From assembly GCF_022410515.1 (NCBI RefSeq), contig NZ_JACSDI010000017.1, forward strand, positions 1-64,000: 64,000 nt of DNA, read 5' to 3'. Source of the DNA: Shewanella cutis. GTDB taxonomy: Bacteria; Pseudomonadota; Gammaproteobacteria; Enterobacterales; Shewanellaceae. Shown one piece after another: positions 1,146-62,091 of the stretch (position 1 is its first letter; the number at the start of each line of letters is the position of its first letter). A program made the position numbers and the translations under genes. The notes beneath the pieces are model-generated. The model ran no database searches and was not told the DNA's origin. It saw only the letters and a program-made list of their open reading frames with translations.

Positions 1146-2444
1146 ATGAAGAATATATTACTAGTAACTGCAATATTTTTTTTAGCTAGTTGTGGTAGTG
1201 ACAATTCATCAGAAACGTCTTCACCAGCCCCACCAACTCCAGAGCGACCAACTCTACCAGTAAGTATTAGCGGTACGGTAACAAAAACATCCTCTGCTGA
1301 TAATACAATTACAGTTAATGGCTATAACGTTAATATTGCCAACGCTAACATTGTATACCGTAAACAGCCTCTAGAGGCTAATGCTCTTCAAATCGGCATG
1401 CGAGTGAAAATAGAGAATCTACAAAATCAGGCAAAAAATGTCATTTTAGAACCTAGCATTTTAGGTGAAGTCAGCTCTGTCAGTACAAGTTCCATTGCAG
1501 TTAATGGTATAGACATCGCAATTAAGTCCACAGATAAAACTCCATATAAAATTGGAGATTGGGTAGCGGTTAATGGTTATCCAAGTGCGACGGGAGAATG
1601 GCAGGTAGAGTTTATAAACTTAATTCCAAATTTTACCTATGCTGAAATCGAGGGGCATATATCGGGATTAAACAAAATATTACAGCAATTCAGCATAGGC
1701 ACTGCAGTGATTAATTATGCCAGTGCGCATTTAGATGGAAATCTACAAGAAGGTGCTTGGGTTGAGGTTGAAGGTCAACAGCATGGTTCGGTTTTTTTAG
1801 CAACAGAGGTTGATGCTGAAGATATTAACGATTCTCCGATATTCAATGAGATGGAATTAGAAGGTACTGTAACCTGGATTAACAAAGACAAGAGCCAATT
1901 TGAGCTTAATAGTCGTATTAAACTCTATGTAAATGAAACAACACACTTTGAAGATGGCCATCGTGCAAACCTAACTCCTGGCAAGCGAGTCGAAGTTGAT
2001 ATTTTGTCTACACCGCAGGGATTATGGGCTAAAAAAGTAGATTTTGAAAATTCTGACACTGGTGGAACTGTAACTGATTTGGGGAGAAAGTTCGAACTTG
2101 AAGGCAGAGCAACACTTAACAACACTTATCAACTACAGATCAATGAATATAGCTTTATTATCGATGCAAGAACTCAATTTGATGATGGATTAACCCTGGA
2201 AACGATTAACCATAAGTGGGTACAAATTGAGGGAATAGAAATAGCTGATGGCCAGTGGTTAGTGAAAGAAATTGAACTTGAACGTCAAGATAATGAGCTA
2301 GATCTAAGCGGTAGAGTCATGCAAAACAGCCTCTGGGGCTACCATGCTATTGATGCATCTTTAGCTTCATTTGATGGCAAATGGGTTAATATGGAATGTC
2401 AGTTTGATGGCTTAAACATTTATGATTGTCGACTAGACGATTAG
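1146..2444 (+). CDS. DUF5666-type lipoprotein (paralogue of 56996-58279)
   Basis: The 432-residue product begins with a lipoprotein signal (lipobox LASC, Cys16), then a Pro/Ser/Thr-rich linker, then repeated beta-rich modules of the DUF5666 kind. Typical phrases are SGTVTKT, ITVNGYNVNI, GDWVAVNGYP and GAWVEVEGQQ. Each module looks like a small OB-like barrel that alternates 'G.V' and 'V.G' strands. The C-terminus carries a probable disulfide pair (MECQFDGLNIYDC). It is collinear and very similar to the protein at 56996-58279, but its DNA is much more AT-rich. Function is unknown; an exported surface or periplasmic role is inferred. An AAGGAAAT ribosome site at 1136-1143 supports the start. 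Confidence 0.75.
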   Translation: MKNILLVTAIFFLASCGSDNSSETSSPAPPTPERPTLPVSISGTVTKTSSADNTITVNGYNVNIANANIVYRKQPLEANALQIGMRVKIENLQNQAKNVILEPSILGEVSSVSTSSIAVNGIDIAIKSTDKTPYKIGDWVAVNGYPSATGEWQVEFINLIPNFTYAEIEGHISGLNKILQQFSIGTAVINYASAHLDGNLQEGAWVEVEGQQHGSVFLATEVDAEDINDSPIFNEMELEGTVTWINKDKSQFELNSRIKLYVNETTHFEDGHRANLTPGKRVEVDILSTPQGLWAKKVDFENSDTGGTVTDLGRKFELEGRATLNNTYQLQINEYSFIIDARTQFDDGLTLETINHKWVQIEGIEIADGQWLVKEIELERQDNELDLSGRVMQNSLWGYHAIDASLASFDGKWVNMECQFDGLNIYDCRLDD

Positions 2445-43365: not shown

Positions 43366-44020
43366 CCCTAAGGCTTAAGCCAACGCCACGAATTGTATGT
43401 AATATTTGCCGCTCAAACGGGCGATCGATCACTCGGCGCAAAAGATGAATATGGCTGCGCAAGCTGTCACTATCTGGTGCACAGTCGGGCCAAAGCATTC
43501 GCTCAATCTCTTCTCTAGTCACGGTTTCTGGACTACGACGCGCTAATAAAGCCAGGATCTGCCATCCGGTTTTAGACAAAACCAGCAGTTGCCCTTGCCG
43601 ATACACCATGTGGTTTGCAAAATCGATTTCTAGGTCGCCAATAGTCAATCTTTGGGGCGCGGGACGGCGCTGGGCGACCACCTTCAGCCGCGCGACCAGC
43701 TCCTCCATCGCAAAGGGTTTTATTAAATAATCGTCCGCACCCACAGAAAACCCACTCAAGCGATCATTCAGACTACTACGTGCAGTTAACATGATTACTG
43801 GTGAGGTAATGCACTGTGCTTTCCAGCGTTCACACGCTTCAATCCCATCCCCATCCGGCAAATTTAGATCGAGAATAATAGCGTCAAATTGCTGCTGGCT
43901 AATGAGCATATCTGCTTGCGCTAGGTTGAACGCGTAATCGCACTCTATGCCACTCAATTCAAGATATTGAATGATGTTGTTAGAGAGCAGCCGGTTGTCT
44001 TCAACCAGTAATACCAACAT
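43343..44020 (-). CDS. OmpR-family response regulator of the urdA region
   Basis: This is a 225-residue two-domain regulator. The receiver has the acidic pair in VEDN, phosphoacceptor Asp51 (ILDLNLPDGDG), Thr79 and Lys101 (YLIKPF). The C-terminal winged helix spans about residues 125-220 (LSKTGWQILALLARRSPETVTREEIERMLW, RSHIHLLRRVID, IRGVGLSL). It starts two bases after the LuxR-type gene and overlaps the kinase gene, so the three form one operon. It is closely related to the regulator at 58368. Confidence 0.93.
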   Translation of the reverse strand: MLVLLVEDNRLLSNNIIQYLELSGIECDYAFNLAQADMLISQQQFDAIILDLNLPDGDGIEACERWKAQCITSPVIMLTARSSLNDRLSGFSVGADDYLIKPFAMEELVARLKVVAQRRPAPQRLTIGDLEIDFANHMVYRQGQLLVLSKTGWQILALLARRSPETVTREEIERMLWPDCAPDSDSLRSHIHLLRRVIDRPFERQILHTIRGVGLSLRDEINASA

Positions 44021-56995: not shown

Positions 56996-58279
56996 TTAGT
57001 CGTCAATGCGGCAACTGTGGATTTGCATGCCATCAAACTGACATTCCACATTAACCCATTTACCATCAAAGGTCGCTAATGAGGCATCACTAGCATGGTA
57101 ACCCCACAGACTGTTCTGGCTCACCTTTCCGGTTAACTCCAGTTCATTACTCTGCTGTTCGAGATCAATTTCCTTCACTAGCCATTGGCCATCGGCTAAT
57201 TCAACGCCCTCGATTTGCAGCCATTTTTGATCAAGGGTTGCAAGGGTTAAGCCATCGTCAAACTGGGTTCTCGCGTCGATAATAAAGGTAAAGCCATTGA
57301 TTTGTAGCTGGTTATTGCTATCGAGCGTGGCTCGCCCTTCAAGCTCAAACTTGTTGCCTAAATCGGGTAATGGACCACCCGCATCTGAACTTTCAAAGTC
57401 GACCTCTTTGGCCCACAGGCCCTGAGCAGTGGATTGAATATCCACCTCTAGGCGCTTACCTTCCAGCAAATTGCTGCGATTACCATCTTCAAATTGTGTC
57501 TGCTCAGTCACATAGAGTCGTGTGCGGCTATTAAGCTCAAACTGGCTCTTGTCTTGGTTAACCCAAGTCACTGTACCCTCTAACTCCATCTCGTTGAACG
57601 TCGGCACATCACTCGCATCTTCAACATCGACTTCATGGGCCTTAAATACCGCACCATCCTGTTGACCTTCAACCTCAACCCACGCGCCTTCGGCTAACTG
57701 CCCTTCTAACTCGGCATTGGCATAATCGATCAAGGCTGAGCCCAAGCGAAATTGCTGCGCAACAGGATCAAGCCCGGTCACCCGACCTTCGATTTCAGCA
57801 ATTGCGAAATTCGGGAAAAGGTTAATCGACTCTACCTGCCACTTTCCAACCGCAGTAGGATAGCCATTTACCGCTACCCAATCGCCCTTTTTATATTGGC
57901 TAGCTGATACAACGGCTAACTGTATGCCATTGACTGTAATATTATTTTGATTGATGGCACTGATTTCACCGACTAGCGCAGGATCGACAGCAACCGTTTT
58001 AGCCTGCTGACCTTGGTTAACCAAATCTAGGCGCATCCCCACTTGAATAGCTTTGGCATCCAGTGGTTGTTGTTGATAACGAATATCTGCATTGGCGATA
58101 TTAATCTTGTATCCATTCACAGTGATCTGTTGATGGTCTGCGGACACTTGAGTCACAGTCCCCATCACTTTAGCGGGTAAATTCGCGGGAGGTGGCGTCA
58201 CATCCGTTGATGAACCGTCGCTACCACAGGCGGTCAATAGTAATGCGCTAATACCTATACCTACTAAGTGCTTATTCAT
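56996..58279 (-). CDS. DUF5666-type lipoprotein next to a two-component system
   Basis: This is a 427-residue exported lipoprotein (lipobox LTAC, Cys18) with a Pro-rich linker and five or more beta-rich DUF5666-like modules (MGTVTQV, ITVNGYKINI, GDWVAVNGYP, GAWVEVEGQQ, ELEGTVTWVNQDKSQFEL). Two Cys close the C-terminus (VECQFDGMQIHSC). It shares most residues with the protein at 1146-2444. It is divergent from the response regulator at 58368 with 88 bases between starts, so it may be a target or input of that system (inference). Function unknown. Confidence 0.78.
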   Translation of the reverse strand: MNKHLVGIGISALLLTACGSDGSSTDVTPPPANLPAKVMGTVTQVSADHQQITVNGYKINIANADIRYQQQPLDAKAIQVGMRLDLVNQGQQAKTVAVDPALVGEISAINQNNITVNGIQLAVVSASQYKKGDWVAVNGYPTAVGKWQVESINLFPNFAIAEIEGRVTGLDPVAQQFRLGSALIDYANAELEGQLAEGAWVEVEGQQDGAVFKAHEVDVEDASDVPTFNEMELEGTVTWVNQDKSQFELNSRTRLYVTEQTQFEDGNRSNLLEGKRLEVDIQSTAQGLWAKEVDFESSDAGGPLPDLGNKFELEGRATLDSNNQLQINGFTFIIDARTQFDDGLTLATLDQKWLQIEGVELADGQWLVKEIDLEQQSNELELTGKVSQNSLWGYHASDASLATFDGKWVNVECQFDGMQIHSCRIDD

Positions 58280-58335
58280 TTTTTGTCCCTTATTTACCTT
58301 GTTAAATCAACGGCTGGCATCTTAGTATGGGAAAC

Positions 58336-58352
58336 GTCAAGCAAACGTGAAG
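58336..58352 (+). promoter_or_regulatory. direct-repeat operator candidate before the response regulator gene
   Basis: GTCAAG-CAAAC-GTGAAG places two similar six-base units 11 bases apart, one helical turn, as OmpR/PmrA/QseB-type regulators bind. It lies 16-32 bases before the regulator start, in the divergent gap shared with the DUF5666 gene. Nearly the same motif occurs at 60304-60320. Confidence 0.6.
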
Positions 58353-58367
58353 AAATGAAGATAACGA

Positions 58368-59036
58368 ATGAAAGTATTAATTGTTGATGACAATCATGAT
58401 GTTATAGAAACAATCATGGACTATTTAACCCTCGAAGGCATTATTGCTGACTGCGCCTATCACGGTGAAAGCGCCATCAATTTAATACAGCAAAACCATT
58501 ATGACGTGATCATTATGGATATTATGATGCCCAAATTAGACGGTATTCGTACGGTCAAAAAACTGCGCGAAGAGCTGTTTTGTAATACACCAATTTTGTT
58601 TTTAACCGCCAGAGATAGCCTGCAGGACAAAATTGATTCCTTTACCTCGGGCGGTGATGACTTTTTAAATAAACCCTTCGCCATGGAAGAACTGTGCCTG
58701 CGTCTACGGTCACTGCATAACCGCGGGCCGCGTTTAGATGTAGGCATATTGCGCTTTGGTGAAATCAGCTTAAATGTCGCAACCCAGCAAGTATGCCGCG
58801 CGGGTAAGGAAATCAAGCTGAGTAAAATCCAACGCACGATTTTGACGCTACTGCTCAAACGTGCCCCTGCTATTGTGAGTAAAGAACAAGTTATCGATGC
58901 AGTTTGGGGTGACGAAGCCCCCTGTAGCGACGCGCTTCGTAGCCATATTTACGGCCTGCGCAGTGCATTGGACAAAGGCTTTACAGATTCCAAACTAGAG
59001 ACGATTCATGGCCAAGGTTACCGACTCATCCCCTAA
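58368..59036 (+). CDS. OmpR-family response regulator (BOF/DUF5666 system)
   Basis: This 222-residue regulator has phosphoacceptor Asp51 (IMDIMMPKLDG), Thr80 and Lys102 (FLNKPFAMEEL). Its winged helix spans about residues 122-220 (LSKIQRTILTLLLKRAPAIVSKEQVIDAVW, LRSHIYGLRSALDKG, IHGQGYRLIP). It is similar to the regulator at 43343, sharing KPFAMEEL and the LRSHI helix. The kinase gene starts inside its last 29 bases. A direct-repeat operator candidate lies just upstream, suggesting autoregulation. Confidence 0.93.
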   Translation: MKVLIVDDNHDVIETIMDYLTLEGIIADCAYHGESAINLIQQNHYDVIIMDIMMPKLDGIRTVKKLREELFCNTPILFLTARDSLQDKIDSFTSGGDDFLNKPFAMEELCLRLRSLHNRGPRLDVGILRFGEISLNVATQQVCRAGKEIKLSKIQRTILTLLLKRAPAIVSKEQVIDAVWGDEAPCSDALRSHIYGLRSALDKGFTDSKLETIHGQGYRLIP

Positions 59037-60300
59037 GCCATTGCCGAGCTTATATAAAAAAATCCGCCTAACGTTTTTAGTGCTCACAAGCCTAATGTTC
59101 GCGATATTCTGGGGCTTGATTTATATCGCCGAAGAACAAATTGAGGTCATTAGCCTTGAACACAAACTGGCGACCGAAACCCGCGAATATCAGAAAAACT
59201 ATCAACGATTTGGCGATAAAGCCCAGCTCCCCGATATCCACGAACTCACCACCTATTGGAGCAAAGAGTTTGTGCCGCAATGGCTGCAAGCTTATCAACA
59301 AACGGGTTTTTATGAGCACCAATTGGGCGCCGAAGATAAGCACTTTTTAATTTCGCCGCACCCATCAGGGCAAGGTTTATTGTATGTGGTGTATAAGGAT
59401 GATGCGGATGACTTTCTCGATGGGTATGAGGACAGACTGCATTTTTTGATATCCCTCTTCGGGGTAGGTTTACTGCTGTTCATCATGGCCTATGGCTTGT
59501 ATTTTGTGCGGCTACTATCGGCACCATTTTTTGAAATTGAACGAAAAATCAATGCGCTGACGCCAGAGGAGCCGAGCTTTATCCCTAGCACACCTTACCG
59601 TGAAACCCGCCATATCGAACAAACGCTACTGGAAAATAAAGCCAAAATTGCCGCCTATTTTACTCGGGAGCAGGAGTTTAGCCGCTTTGCCTCCCATGAA
59701 CTGCGCACGCCCATTATGGTGATCCAAGGCTCGACAGAATTGCTAAAAAAACTGCCAAACAGCCCGAACGAAGCCCAGCAGCGGATCGCTAACAAAGCCA
59801 TTGCCCGCATTGATTACGCAGGCCAACAGATGAAAACCCTCACCGAAACCTTTTTGTTATTAGGCAAGGAACAGATTGAATCGCAACACTACGATCAAGT
59901 TGATTTAGCCGCACGGCTTACGCAGCTATTAAGTGAAATGGCGCAGCATTTTGCTAAACACGAAATCCGCCATCAGCTCAGCGTTAACCAAAATACCGCC
60001 ATTTGCGCACCGGTGAGTTTTGTGGACATAGTGATAGGCAACTTAATTAAAAATGCCTTTAACTACAGCAGTGGCGATATTGAAATCACGCTGAATAACA
60101 ATCAACTAACCATAAAAAATCCGCTTAGCCACCACAACGCCGAGCCCACGGGCTATGGCTGTGGTTTGATCATTATTGAACGGATAAGCGAGCGCATGGG
60201 GTGGCACTTTTCGGCCCAAAGCCTAGGGAATGACTATCTGGCAACAATCCAATTTATGGATAACGGCGAGCAAAAACAGCATCTAAATGAATCCGCTTAA
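59008..60300 (+). CDS. sensor histidine kinase (BOF/DUF5666 system)
   Basis: This 430-residue kinase has membrane helices near residues 21-41 and 147-168, a periplasmic sensor of about 100 residues and phosphoacceptor His230 in FSRFASHELRTPIMV. The N box is IGNLIKNAFNYS. As in the kinase at 42115, the G1 box Asp is missing: the strand reads LTIKNPLSHHN, followed by GYGCGLIIIERI as the G2 box. The start overlaps the regulator gene in another frame, with GAGACG upstream. The downstream BOF gene is 90 bases away. Confidence 0.9.
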   Translation: MAKVTDSSPKPLPSLYKKIRLTFLVLTSLMFAIFWGLIYIAEEQIEVISLEHKLATETREYQKNYQRFGDKAQLPDIHELTTYWSKEFVPQWLQAYQQTGFYEHQLGAEDKHFLISPHPSGQGLLYVVYKDDADDFLDGYEDRLHFLISLFGVGLLLFIMAYGLYFVRLLSAPFFEIERKINALTPEEPSFIPSTPYRETRHIEQTLLENKAKIAAYFTREQEFSRFASHELRTPIMVIQGSTELLKKLPNSPNEAQQRIANKAIARIDYAGQQMKTLTETFLLLGKEQIESQHYDQVDLAARLTQLLSEMAQHFAKHEIRHQLSVNQNTAICAPVSFVDIVIGNLIKNAFNYSSGDIEITLNNNQLTIKNPLSHHNAEPTGYGCGLIIIERISERMGWHFSAQSLGNDYLATIQFMDNGEQKQHLNESA

Positions 60301-60303
60301 ATT

Positions 60304-60320
60304 CTTCACAACTGCTTCAC
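60304..60320 (-). promoter_or_regulatory. direct-repeat operator candidate before the BOF gene
   Basis: On the minus strand GTGAAG-CAGTT-GTGAAG has two identical hexamers 11 bases apart (plus strand CTTCAC-N5-CTTCAC). It lies 71-87 bases before the BOF gene start and matches the element at 58336-58352. The upstream regulator is the likely binder. Confidence 0.6.
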
Positions 60321-60390
60321 GCTCGTCTTGGCATGATACTCGCCGCAGATGAGTCGCCCAGCGGCGTAAGATTAGAAAGAGGACATTTAG

Positions 60391-60780
60391 ATGAATAAAA
60401 TCACCTTAAGCATGTTAGCAATCACATTGTCATTGAGTGCCTTGTGCAGCCAAGCTGGATTTCAACCAACAACGGGCGAACCCCAATTACGTGGCGGCTT
60501 TCAAGGCCCCAGCGCACGGCAAATTATTCATGATGTCGTCAGTGCGCTCAATGCCAGCGATGACACTCAAGTGGAGTTAACCGGCCATATCATGTCGTCA
60601 ATTGGCCACGATGATTATATTTTCCGTGACAGCACGGGCGAGATTAAAATCGAAATTGACGATGATCTGTGGCTCGGACATACCGTCACGCCAGAAACCC
60701 AAGTGATTATTCGCGGTGAAGTGGATAAGGACTGGTCAGAAGTCACTATCGATGCCGACAGCATTCAACTCACTCAATAA
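60391..60780 (+). CDS. BOF (bacterial OB-fold) periplasmic protein, YgiW/YdeI-like
   Basis: This is a 129-residue exported protein with a signal peptide (cleavage near SQA-GF) and a single YgiW/NirD-type OB fold. Family landmarks are VELTGHIMSSIGHDDYIFRDSTGEIKIEIDDDLW and VIIRGEVDKDW. E. coli ygiW is next to qseBC, so its linkage here to a two-component system is a conserved theme. The E. coli relatives take part in stress tolerance and signalling. AGAGGA lies before the start. Confidence 0.85.
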   Translation: MNKITLSMLAITLSLSALCSQAGFQPTTGEPQLRGGFQGPSARQIIHDVVSALNASDDTQVELTGHIMSSIGHDDYIFRDSTGEIKIEIDDDLWLGHTVTPETQVIIRGEVDKDWSEVTIDADSIQLTQ

Positions 60781-61543: not shown

Positions 61544-61846
61544 TTACTGTTTCGTCAGCATAAAACGACGCAAATCTCTTTCCGCACGCATCACAAAAAG
61601 AATTCGAACCTTTTCATCATCATACTTGTAAAAAACACGACATGGATTTACTACTACTTCACGATAATTGAGCCGCTCTAGTTCTGGTGGAATACGCCCA
61701 GAATCGGGAAAATCGACTAAACGCTCAACCTTTGCAAAAACCATTTGAACCAGTTGCTTGGCAGCAACGATATTTTCAAGCGCGATATATTCGGCAATAT
61801 CATTCAGATCAGCTAAAGCAGGTTCCGTCCAAATTATTTCAGCCAT
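61544..61846 (-). CDS. RelE/ParE superfamily toxin
   Basis: This is a 100-residue toxin of a type II module. It has the ParE/RelE pattern: IIWTEPALADLNDIAEYIALEN at the start, then YREVVVNPCRVFYKYDDEKVRILFVMRAERDLRRF. Closeness to ParE (gyrase poison) or RelE (mRNase) cannot be settled from sequence. Its start overlaps the antitoxin stop by 13 bases. Confidence 0.88.
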   Translation of the reverse strand: MAEIIWTEPALADLNDIAEYIALENIVAAKQLVQMVFAKVERLVDFPDSGRIPPELERLNYREVVVNPCRVFYKYDDEKVRILFVMRAERDLRRFMLTKQ

Positions 61847-62091
61847 TTTGACATTCTGTCCTTAGCATCTTGATGGTTGACGACTTTTCCATCCGCTAAA
61901 GCTCGCTCACCACGTGCAATACCTTCAAGGATCGCCAAACGATTTTGCATAAACTCATAATCTTCTACATCAATAAGATAAGCTGACGGTTTACCATGCT
62001 CAGTGATCAATACAGGTTCTTTCGTCTCATGCAGATCGGCAAGGATCTTAGTTGCTTGACGTTTTAGTGACGTCACGAGTTCCACTTTCAT
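61834..62091 (-). CDS. Phd/YefM family antitoxin
   Basis: This is an 85-residue antitoxin. The N-terminal Phd fold binds DNA (VTSLKRQATKILADLHETKEPVLITEHGKPSAYLIDVEDYE). The C-terminal part, with EGIARGERALADGKVV, should wrap the toxin. It leads the two-gene operon; the dyad at 62117-62136 is a likely autoregulatory operator. Confidence 0.9.
   Translation of the reverse strand: MKVELVTSLKRQATKILADLHETKEPVLITEHGKPSAYLIDVEDYEFMQNRLAILEGIARGERALADGKVVNHQDAKDRMSKWLK

What the first reader, a model, noticed from the sequence alone, without database searches (positions are those of the whole stretch)
58280..60780. Self-contained sensory module: response regulator, kinase, BOF protein and divergent DUF5666 lipoprotein with a shared operator
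Seen: GTCAAG-CAAAC-GTGAAG at 58336-58352 and, inverted, GTGAAG-CAGTT-GTGAAG at 60304-60320, both with 11-bp period. One is before the regulator gene (and the divergent lipoprotein gene), the other before the BOF gene. Known: QseB/PmrA-type regulators bind 11-bp-period repeats, and E. coli ygiW (BOF) is next to qseBC. Inferred: a QseBC-YgiW-like circuit whose outputs include a DUF5666 lipoprotein of unknown function.
Basis: partly seen in the sequence, partly recalled or inferred. Interest (0 to 1): 0.78.

Follow-up and report, generated by a model that had tools for sequence, protein, structure and literature searches.

The report
Sensor switch for envelope OB-fold proteins
A bacterial sensor-and-switch gene pair appears to turn on two families of cell-envelope proteins through a precisely built DNA switch kept across several genera of mostly aquatic bacteria, which ties a protein family of unknown function (DUF5666) to known stress-protection proteins.

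Summary
In detail: GTCAAG-N5-GTGAAG (58336-58352) and its partner (60304-60320, minus strand) are where stated. Read with the genes, both are one composite element, CTTCAC-N5-CTT(C/G)AC-N11-(T/C)AnnnT, pointing at the DUF5666 lipoprotein gene and the BOF gene. In 54 orthologous loci, 62 of 66 DUF5666/BOF promoters keep the tandem site with at most 2 mismatches (about 1 expected), and those 62 have a -10-like hexamer exactly 11 nt downstream. Among 97 Shewanella genomes the composite occurs in 23 of 23 with this two-component system and 4 of 74 without it; in 101 genomes of a Vibrionaceae-like family, 38 of 42 against 8 of 59. It also precedes related BOF genes located elsewhere in the genome (11 of 13). 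A dedicated OmpR/PhoB-type activator of periplasmic OB-fold proteins is well supported. QseBC identity is not (QseB/QseC model cut-offs not met). DUF5666 is predicted to be a chain of OB folds, so the DUF5666/BOF swaps look like exchange of like for like. Signal and biochemistry are inferred: cationic-peptide or cation stress. No binding or expression was measured.

The parts
56996..58279 (-). DUF5666 lipoprotein gene (427 aa; LLLTAC lipobox by eye), predicted chain of OB-fold domains; output 1
   Evidence: Pfam DUF5666 1.6e-30, 3 stretches; AlphaFold2 mean pLDDT 84; nearest PDB matches include CusF, PilY2, cold-shock proteins, CcmE
58319..58324 (-). -10-like hexamer TAAGAT of the lipoprotein promoter, 11 nt from operator 1
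   Evidence: A at position 2 and T at position 6 in 62 of 62 aligned promoters
58336..58352 (-). operator 1: CTTCAC-GTTTG-CTTGAC read toward the lipoprotein gene (15 bp lie between it and the regulator's start codon)
58368..59036 (+). OmpR/PhoB-type response regulator (222 aa)
   Evidence: Pfam Response_reg 1.2e-28, Trans_reg_C 2.1e-16
59008..60300 (+). sensor histidine kinase (430 aa) with a small domain between two long helices, taken as periplasmic; overlaps the regulator gene by 29 bp
   Evidence: HisKA 6.2e-11; model pLDDT 78.5; invariant H112, H118, D134, D135, D138, E141, H145 in 13 sequences
60304..60320 (+). operator 2: CTTCAC-AACTG-CTTCAC read toward the BOF gene, 3 bp after the kinase stop codon
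60332..60337 (+). -10-like hexamer CATGAT of the BOF promoter, 11 nt from operator 2
60391..60780 (+). BOF (YgiW/YdeI-type OB-fold) protein, 129 aa, with an N-terminal signal-like stretch; output 2
   Evidence: Pfam BOF 1.6e-28; PDB 1nnx YgiW 7.7e-22

Best explanation
This is a dedicated two-component switch. The membrane kinase senses something at the envelope (inferred) and phosphorylates the OmpR/PhoB-type regulator (inferred from family). Two regulator molecules bind head to tail to CTTCAC-N5-CTTCAC (inferred from the tandem geometry). The bound pair sits about where the -35 element would be, with a -10-like hexamer 11 nt downstream, so it recruits RNA polymerase and activates the gene downstream (geometry shown, activation inferred). 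The targets are envelope OB-fold proteins: the DUF5666 lipoprotein and one or more BOF proteins (promoter linkage shown; OB fold of DUF5666 predicted). The site near the regulator may also feed back on the regulator gene, perhaps by repression because it would cover the start of that transcript (weak inference). Physiologically I think the outputs bind cationic stressors (antimicrobial peptides or metal cations) in the periplasm, as the BOF protein SipA does with peptides in V. cholerae, perhaps handing them to an outer-membrane barrel (inferred, about 0.4 likely). The confidence given is for the regulatory part.
For: Conservation: 45 of 46 DUF5666 promoters and 17 of 20 locus-linked BOF promoters in 54 orthologous loci have the tandem site at <=2 mismatches, each pointing at the gene; shuffles expect 0.6 and 0.4. 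Fixed -10 at 11 nt: 62 of 62 of these. Specificity: composite in 23 of 23 genomes with the system and 4 of 74 without it among 97 Shewanella genomes; reversed control 0 of 97; 34 of the 35 sites in system-positive genomes lie before DUF5666 or BOF genes. Second family: 38 of 42 against 8 of 59; within one unnamed genus 9 of 9 against 0 of 17. Targets in trans: unlinked BOF promoters 11 of 13, shuffles expect 0.015, whereas 0 of 6 examined BOF genes beside another regulator gene (CopR/CzcR-like in the one scanned) and 0 of 4 other BOF genes have it. In 10 Vibrionaceae-like genomes a site on another contig than the kinase precedes a barrel protein (OmpA-like by Pfam in the 2 scanned) with BOF in the locus. 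DUF5666 and BOF replace each other at the locus (39 DUF5666 only, 7 both, 7 BOF only, 1 neither). DUF5666 predicted OB folds. Literature: VC1638-39 is needed for induction of the BOF gene sipA by polymyxin B (PMC5636140, abstract and passages); SipA binds antimicrobial peptides and OmpA (PMC6370654, abstract and passages).
Against: No binding, expression or phenotype data. The half-site motif at 1 mismatch is not enriched in the own genome (15 against 29 for the control). One DUF5666 promoter (L115) needs 3 mismatches, and three linked BOF genes have no site within 300 bp (the second BOF of L286; L287, whose site is about 350 bp away; and the L295 BOF that lies behind DUF5666). 2 of 13 unlinked BOF promoters need 3 mismatches. 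Three loci keep the leftward element with no DUF5666 gene there (L105, L286, L287), which plain activation of DUF5666 does not explain. Four system-positive genomes (G747, G799, G800, G814) gave no composite hit, and one system-negative genome (G768, L350) has the site before a BOF gene. A second DUF5666 gene in this window (1146-2444) has no site. Profile comparison finds no sequence homology of DUF5666 with BOF. Genomes are related, so the Fisher values overstate independence. vca0732 (sipA) and vc1639 mutants showed no polymyxin B sensitivity in El Tor V. cholerae (PMC5636140, passages), so even the precedent's role depends on the strain.
Confidence: 0.78

Rival explanations
1. The same regulatory circuit, but for metals: DUF5666 and BOF are CusF/CcmE-like periplasmic metal or haem carriers and the kinase senses a metal cation.
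For: Matches to DUF5666 domains include CusF (2qcp Z 8.5, 67 aligned, rmsd 2.9; 2vb2 Z 8.4) and CcmE (1sr3 Z 7.4); a BOF gene (L212) and a BOF-RR-HK-DUF5666 operon (L225) have CopR/CzcR-like regulators (218.5 and 217 bits, below the cut-off of 279.2); a PCuAC copper chaperone gene lies on the DUF5666 side in Vibrio AND4; the kinase's sensor part has invariant His and Asp.
Against: Z near 8 is a level the tool warns about, and a shared fold shows no function; CusF's metal ligands were not looked for; the PCuAC case is a single genome.
Confidence: 0.25
2. The sites belong to another regulator with a similar box, such as CpxR, and the neighbouring system is only a passenger.
For: The recalled CpxR box (GTAAA-N5-GTAAA) resembles GTGAAG-N5-GTGAAG; CpxR overexpression raised vc1639 and vca0732 in V. 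cholerae (quoted in PMC5636140, passages).
Against: The composite follows the presence of this system across genomes in two families; a general regulator would not be expected to follow it (the presence of CpxR in these genomes was not tested).
Confidence: 0.06
3. The site serves chiefly as the regulator's own autoregulatory site, and its use by DUF5666 is incidental.
For: It ends 15 bp before the regulator's start codon and is kept before the regulator in three loci with no DUF5666 there.
Against: The -10 hexamer 11 nt away lies on the DUF5666 side in the 45 DUF5666 promoters with a site, BOF promoters have the same layout, and five loci of order BOF-RR-HK-BOF carry the sites before the BOF genes.
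Confidence: 0.08
4. A true QseBC-YgiW system.
For: Tandem 11-bp repeats, BOF neighbour.
Against: QseB and QseC model cut-offs far from met; different box; BOF lies after the kinase rather than on the other side of the regulator as ygiW does in Salmonella (PMC2653508, passages).
Confidence: 0.03

Closest known systems
V. cholerae VC1638-VC1639 -> SipA (VCA0732) (PMC5636140, PMC6370654; abstracts and passages)
   Same: Two-component system needed for strong expression of a periplasmic BOF gene, which there lies on another chromosome; no other gene showed the same pattern of regulation in that study
   Different: Published receiver residues D8, D9, D51, K101 give spacings (42 and 50) that fit paralogous Vibrio regulators such as L169, not this one (43 and 51); the passages read mention no DUF5666 and no binding site
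QseBC/PreAB -> ygiW (PMC2653508, passages)
   Same: Two-component system activating an adjacent BOF gene
   Different: QseB/QseC models not met; PreA activates further operons (preAB, mdaB-ygiN, PmrA-regulated genes); gene order differs
PmrAB/BasRS
   Same: Tandem hexamers with a 5-bp gap, head to tail (PMC3973317, passages); BasR is among the nearest solved sequences
   Different: PmrA box CTTAAG-N5-XTTAAT; PmrA model cut-off not met (142.9 of 330)
BqsRS/CarSR of Pseudomonas aeruginosa (PMC4682146, passages; CarO as a BOF target is recalled)
   Same: Tandem pentamers with 11-bp period (TTAAG-N6-TTAAG) and strict spacing; responds to ferrous iron
   Different: 432 potential operators at <=2 mutations are reported there; here the composite gives 1 to 3 sites per system-positive Shewanella genome, though the two counts use different rules
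DUF5666 (PF18914)
   Same: Member by Pfam score
   Different: No function known to me; 4 papers in the library hold the term, and the one passage read only lists a gene name

Membership tests
OmpR/PhoB family response regulators | receiver plus winged-helix C-terminal domain | tested here: met
   PF00072 99.9 bits, PF00486 60.2 bits, both over cut-off
OmpR/PhoB family response regulators | binds tandem repeats of about 11-bp period | not testable with these tools
   Such repeats are conserved at the promoters; binding not measured
QseBC | regulator meets QseB equivalog model | tested here: not met
   NF007663 98.6 bits, cut-off 345
QseBC | kinase meets QseC equivalog model | tested here: not met
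   NF007664 42.4 bits, cut-off 475
PmrAB | regulator meets PmrA equivalog model | tested here: not met
   NF007928 142.9 bits, cut-off 330
VC1638-VC1639 | orthology of the regulator | tested here: inconclusive
   The V. cholerae sequence was not fetched; only published residue numbers were compared with loci
BqsRS/CarSR | orthology of regulator and kinase | not tested
   No BqsR or BqsS sequence was fetched
BOF (PF04076) | Pfam gathering score | tested here: met
   99.2 bits, cut-off 25.8
YgiW/YdeI subfamily TIGR00156 | curated cut-off | tested here: not met
   93.2 bits, cut-off 108.15; the broader NF033674 is met (117.8 bits, cut-off 35)
DUF5666 (PF18914) | Pfam gathering score | tested here: met
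   105.6 bits, cut-off 27
OB fold (for DUF5666) | five-stranded barrel with a helix between strands 3 and 4 | tested here: inconclusive
   Predicted model only; strand/short-helix/strand order fits by eye and most of the best structural matches are proteins I recall as OB fold; best Z 8.5; domains were not folded separately

The most novel reading that the evidence does not exclude
DUF5666 proteins are strings of OB-fold carriers that do in one lipoprotein what BOF proteins do singly: they catch cationic peptides or metal ions in the periplasm and pass them to an outer-membrane barrel. This switch is the dedicated regulator of that relay, and its composite operator (CTTCAC-N5-CTTCAC-N11-TAnnnT) finds the outputs across a genome, including the barrel-plus-BOF operons seen in one Aliivibrio-like genus.
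Probability: 0.3. Interest if true: 0.75.

Novelty: new variant of a known kind. Interest (0 to 1): 0.6.

Why it matters
It gives a family of unknown function (DUF5666) a predicted fold, a regulator, a promoter and a partner family, all directly testable in a harmless laboratory Shewanella. The operator is specific enough to propose the regulon from sequence. The exchange of DUF5666 for BOF genes under one operator suggests they share a task, which could help settle what BOF proteins such as YgiW, YdeI and SipA do.

Tried and rejected
Chance was rejected, though the loose half-site pattern alone would not have excluded it. QseBC membership was rejected on model scores. Direct homology of DUF5666 and BOF by profile comparison: only the signal peptides aligned, probability 12.3; the likeness is of predicted fold only. 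The kinase model searched against the PDB returned kinase structures in the 50 rows shown, nothing for the sensor part. A class-wide search found the kinase (E <= 1e-60) in only 2 of 369 genomes, the own genome being one, so the system is narrow. YgiW (1nnx) does not appear in the 50 rows shown of either comparison of the DUF5666 model; the tool states that absence excludes nothing. Foldseek's list also holds low-probability rows of DDB1, which I recall as a different fold.

Sites outside the regulon: 12 of 38 exact tandem hits in the 23 system-positive Shewanella genomes were not before DUF5666 or BOF (my count from the places); the 7 of these 12 that were fetched lay inside open frames of 150 codons or more (6) or near a contig end (1), with at most 2 of 6 matches to TATAAT at the 11-nt distance. 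In system-negative Shewanella genomes all 5 composite hits begin TTTCAC; the two in G028 are in the region of a paralogous regulator, beside a DJ-1/PfpI gene (Pfam) and a gene that looks like an ABC transporter by eye. In the Vibrionaceae-like set, of the 8 system-negative genomes with a hit, 4 have it before a small secreted protein gene (the one scanned is PepSY), G768 has it before BOF, G763 has no gene called downstream, and G748 and G756 were not examined.

Rows dropped before counts: L107 and L117 were removed from 56 orthologous loci because they are the same contigs as L046 and L295, leaving 54. The order search gave 30 genomes, own included; 19 of the other 29 were taken as regions plus one of the class search; the 10 not taken are all of family f205. 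The extra kinase hits were not added to the 54. Of 45 BOF places, 30 had loci; of the other 15, two are linked ones seen in L051 and L052, and 13 were not examined. Start codons are the first start in each open frame, so distances can be off. The null used dinucleotide shuffles, that single-base shuffles. BOF, DUF5666, RR and HK hits in my loci come from profiles I built from the first 23 Shewanella loci, not from Pfam, unless Pfam is named. The family f201 is unnamed; I call it Vibrionaceae-like because its loci resemble those of named Vibrio, Photobacterium and Aliivibrio contigs. Literature searches on DUF5666, on YgiW/QseB/OB-fold, on Shewanella with BOF and on Shewanella with polymyxin (listings) showed no title or abstract that I recognised as describing this system; the library is open-access only, so this is not proof of absence.
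Full report
What was claimed and whether it is there. The loose motif is not rare: at up to 2 mismatches the window holds 20 against 12.75 expected, and at up to 1 mismatch the own genome holds 15 against 29 for the reversed control. The exact GTGAAGN5GTGAAG is rare: one in 4.86 Mb, at the BOF promoter. So the case had to be decided by relatives.

Relatives. Among 97 genomes of the genus, 23 hold a regulator at least 64% identical (own included); the other listed matches are at 45% or less. The genus is Shewanella: contig C1 of G089 has the same length as a contig titled Shewanella nanhaiensis. An order-wide search found the kinase in 30 of 295 genomes, in 7 of 99 genera; a class-wide one in 2 of 369; own genome included in both. 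After removing two duplicates, 54 loci were analysed. In a quick tree they form one side of a branch against the 67 paralogues with support 92, which the tool does not count as shown.

Architectures. 39 loci have DUF5666 without BOF, 7 have both, 7 have BOF without DUF5666, 1 has neither. The order is usually DUF5666 leftward, regulator and kinase rightward, with BOF after the kinase where it is present; five loci read BOF-RR-HK-BOF; one (L295) has BOF behind DUF5666 on the leftward side. On the tree the presence of DUF5666 needs at least 4 changes and that of linked BOF at least 4. None of the 67 paralogue loci had a DUF5666 or BOF hit at E 1e-4; a site at <=1 mismatch was seen in 6 of them, more than 1 kb from the regulator start; of the 13 ortholog loci of the same scan 10 have one at the regulator promoter and 12 have DUF5666.

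The operator. For each DUF5666 or BOF gene in the 54 loci I took the upstream DNA (150 or 300 nt). The site is present with at most 2 mismatches in 45 of 46 DUF5666 and 17 of 20 BOF promoters, each pointing at the gene, against 0.6 and 0.4 expected in dinucleotide shuffles. In these 62 promoters a hexamer lies exactly 11 nt further on with A at its second and T at its sixth position in 62 of 62; the mean likeness to TATAAT is 4.1 of 6 at that spacing against at most 3.0 at the other spacings from 6 to 18. This is the layout expected of a regulator that takes the place of the -35 element (general knowledge of the OmpR/PhoB family, recalled).

Specificity. The composite YTTCACRN4YTTSACRN10YANNVTR, made from those promoters, was sought in the 97 genomes: 40 sites in 27 genomes, none for the reversed control. 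All 23 system-positive genomes have it; 34 of their 35 sites precede DUF5666 or BOF by their places, and the other (G022:C1:22547) lies near a paralogous regulator. Four of 74 system-negative genomes have 5 sites, all beginning TTTCAC. Fisher's test gives 1.6e-18, or 8.9e-23 if the first half-site must be CTTCAC (23 of 23 against 0 of 74); both are overstated because the genomes are related and the pattern was built partly from them. The test was repeated in 101 genomes of a Vibrionaceae-like family (for sites, 97 for the kinase): 38 of 42 positive against 8 of 59 negative, and with CTTCAC first 34 of 42 against 1 of 59. Within one unnamed genus with both kinds, 9 of 9 against 0 of 17. Some promoters of that family had gone into the pattern, so this second test is not fully independent.

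Targets in trans. In 13 Shewanella genomes without BOF at the locus a related BOF gene lies elsewhere; 11 have the composite at <=2 mismatches upstream, 0.015 expected, and the other two at 3. Six examined BOF genes beside another regulator gene (CopR/CzcR-like in the one scanned) and four other BOF genes have none. In the second family, 24 of the 30 fetched sites belong to system-positive genomes, and each of these 24 loci has BOF (12) or DUF5666 (12). In 10 of them the gene just after the site encodes a barrel protein of 209-215 residues with BOF in the same locus; four were read in full and have barrel then BOF in one direction, and the two barrels scanned match OMP_b-brl and OmpA_membrane (4.1e-08 and 2.8e-08). 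In those 10 genomes the kinase lies on another contig. That is notable because V. cholerae SipA, a BOF protein, binds OmpA (PMC6370654, abstract and passages).

What DUF5666 may be. The lipoprotein was modelled from 12 aligned sequences, mean pLDDT 84, pTM 0.66: by eye, five or six small barrels in a row with the strand and helix order of an OB fold. Foldseek's best row is ribosomal protein S1 (E 5.5e-10), then a cold-shock-domain chain and baculovirus LEF-3, with CusF and CspA lower; VIA-align gives PilY2 (Z 8.5, 75 aligned, rmsd 2.6), CusF 2qcp (Z 8.5, 67, 2.9) and CcmE (Z 7.4, 68, 4.1). I recall most listed rows as OB-fold proteins. A profile search of PDB sequences gave cold-shock protein at E 0.65, a hint only. 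There is no detectable sequence homology with BOF. Short Aeromonas forms (138-142 aa) start, by eye, with a signal peptide without a lipobox.

How it probably works. Shown: gene order, conserved operators with fixed -10 distance, targets, co-occurrence. Predicted: OB fold. Inferred: phosphotransfer, binding, activation. The signal is unknown. The part of the kinase between its two long N-terminal helices has invariant H112, H118, D134, D135, D138, E141 and H145 in 13 sequences, which would suit cation or cationic-peptide sensing. The best functional precedent is VC1638-39, needed for induction of the BOF gene sipA by polymyxin B (PMC5636140, abstract and passages); its published residue spacing fits a paralogous group rather than this regulator, so orthology is doubtful. 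A metal-carrier role is the main rival.

What does not fit. Three loci (L105, L286, L287) keep the leftward operator and, by eye, a -10 although no DUF5666 gene is there. They may be remnants, serve regulator feedback, or drive something not seen. The second DUF5666 gene of this window (1146-2444, 64% identical) has no operator. Four system-positive genomes had no composite and one system-negative genome has it before BOF.

Verdict. A real, conserved and specific regulatory module; QseBC-like in how it works, not a QseBC member by the tests made; a new variant of the two-component-to-BOF kind, with DUF5666 as an added or alternative output.

Noticed in passing
window 1146-2444 (+): A second DUF5666 gene, 432 aa, 64% identical to the first over 422 aa, without the operator and with no regulator or kinase hit in the first 9 kb of the window.
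   Followed up: partly
L330-L336, L338, L339, L341 (sites near position 1501): The same operator sits before a barrel gene (OmpA-like in the two scanned) with BOF in the locus, on another contig than the two-component genes.
   Followed up: partly
L225 1995-6052 (G087:C94): A row of genes in one direction, BOF - CopR/CzcR-like regulator (below cut-off) - kinase - DUF5666 (486 aa): a different two-component system with the same two protein families.
   Followed up: partly
L342, L343, L345, L346: TTTCAC-N5-TTTCAC sites with a -10-like hexamer before small secreted proteins (PepSY in the one scanned, L345) in genomes where this system was not found; perhaps another regulator's box.
   Followed up: no
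L106 5907-6431 and L116 5907-6431: In two Photobacterium loci a gene follows the kinase closely; it is a lipocalin by Pfam in L106, and similar by eye in L116.
   Followed up: no
L105 3204-3680 (-): Vibrio AND4 has a PCuAC copper chaperone gene on the side where DUF5666 usually lies.
   Followed up: no
window 61544-62091 (-): A ParE toxin / Phd-YefM antitoxin gene pair a little beyond the module.
   Followed up: no
window 43373-44020 (-): A response regulator gene whose best NCBIfam model is PmrA (158.5 bits, below its cut-off of 330).
   Followed up: no
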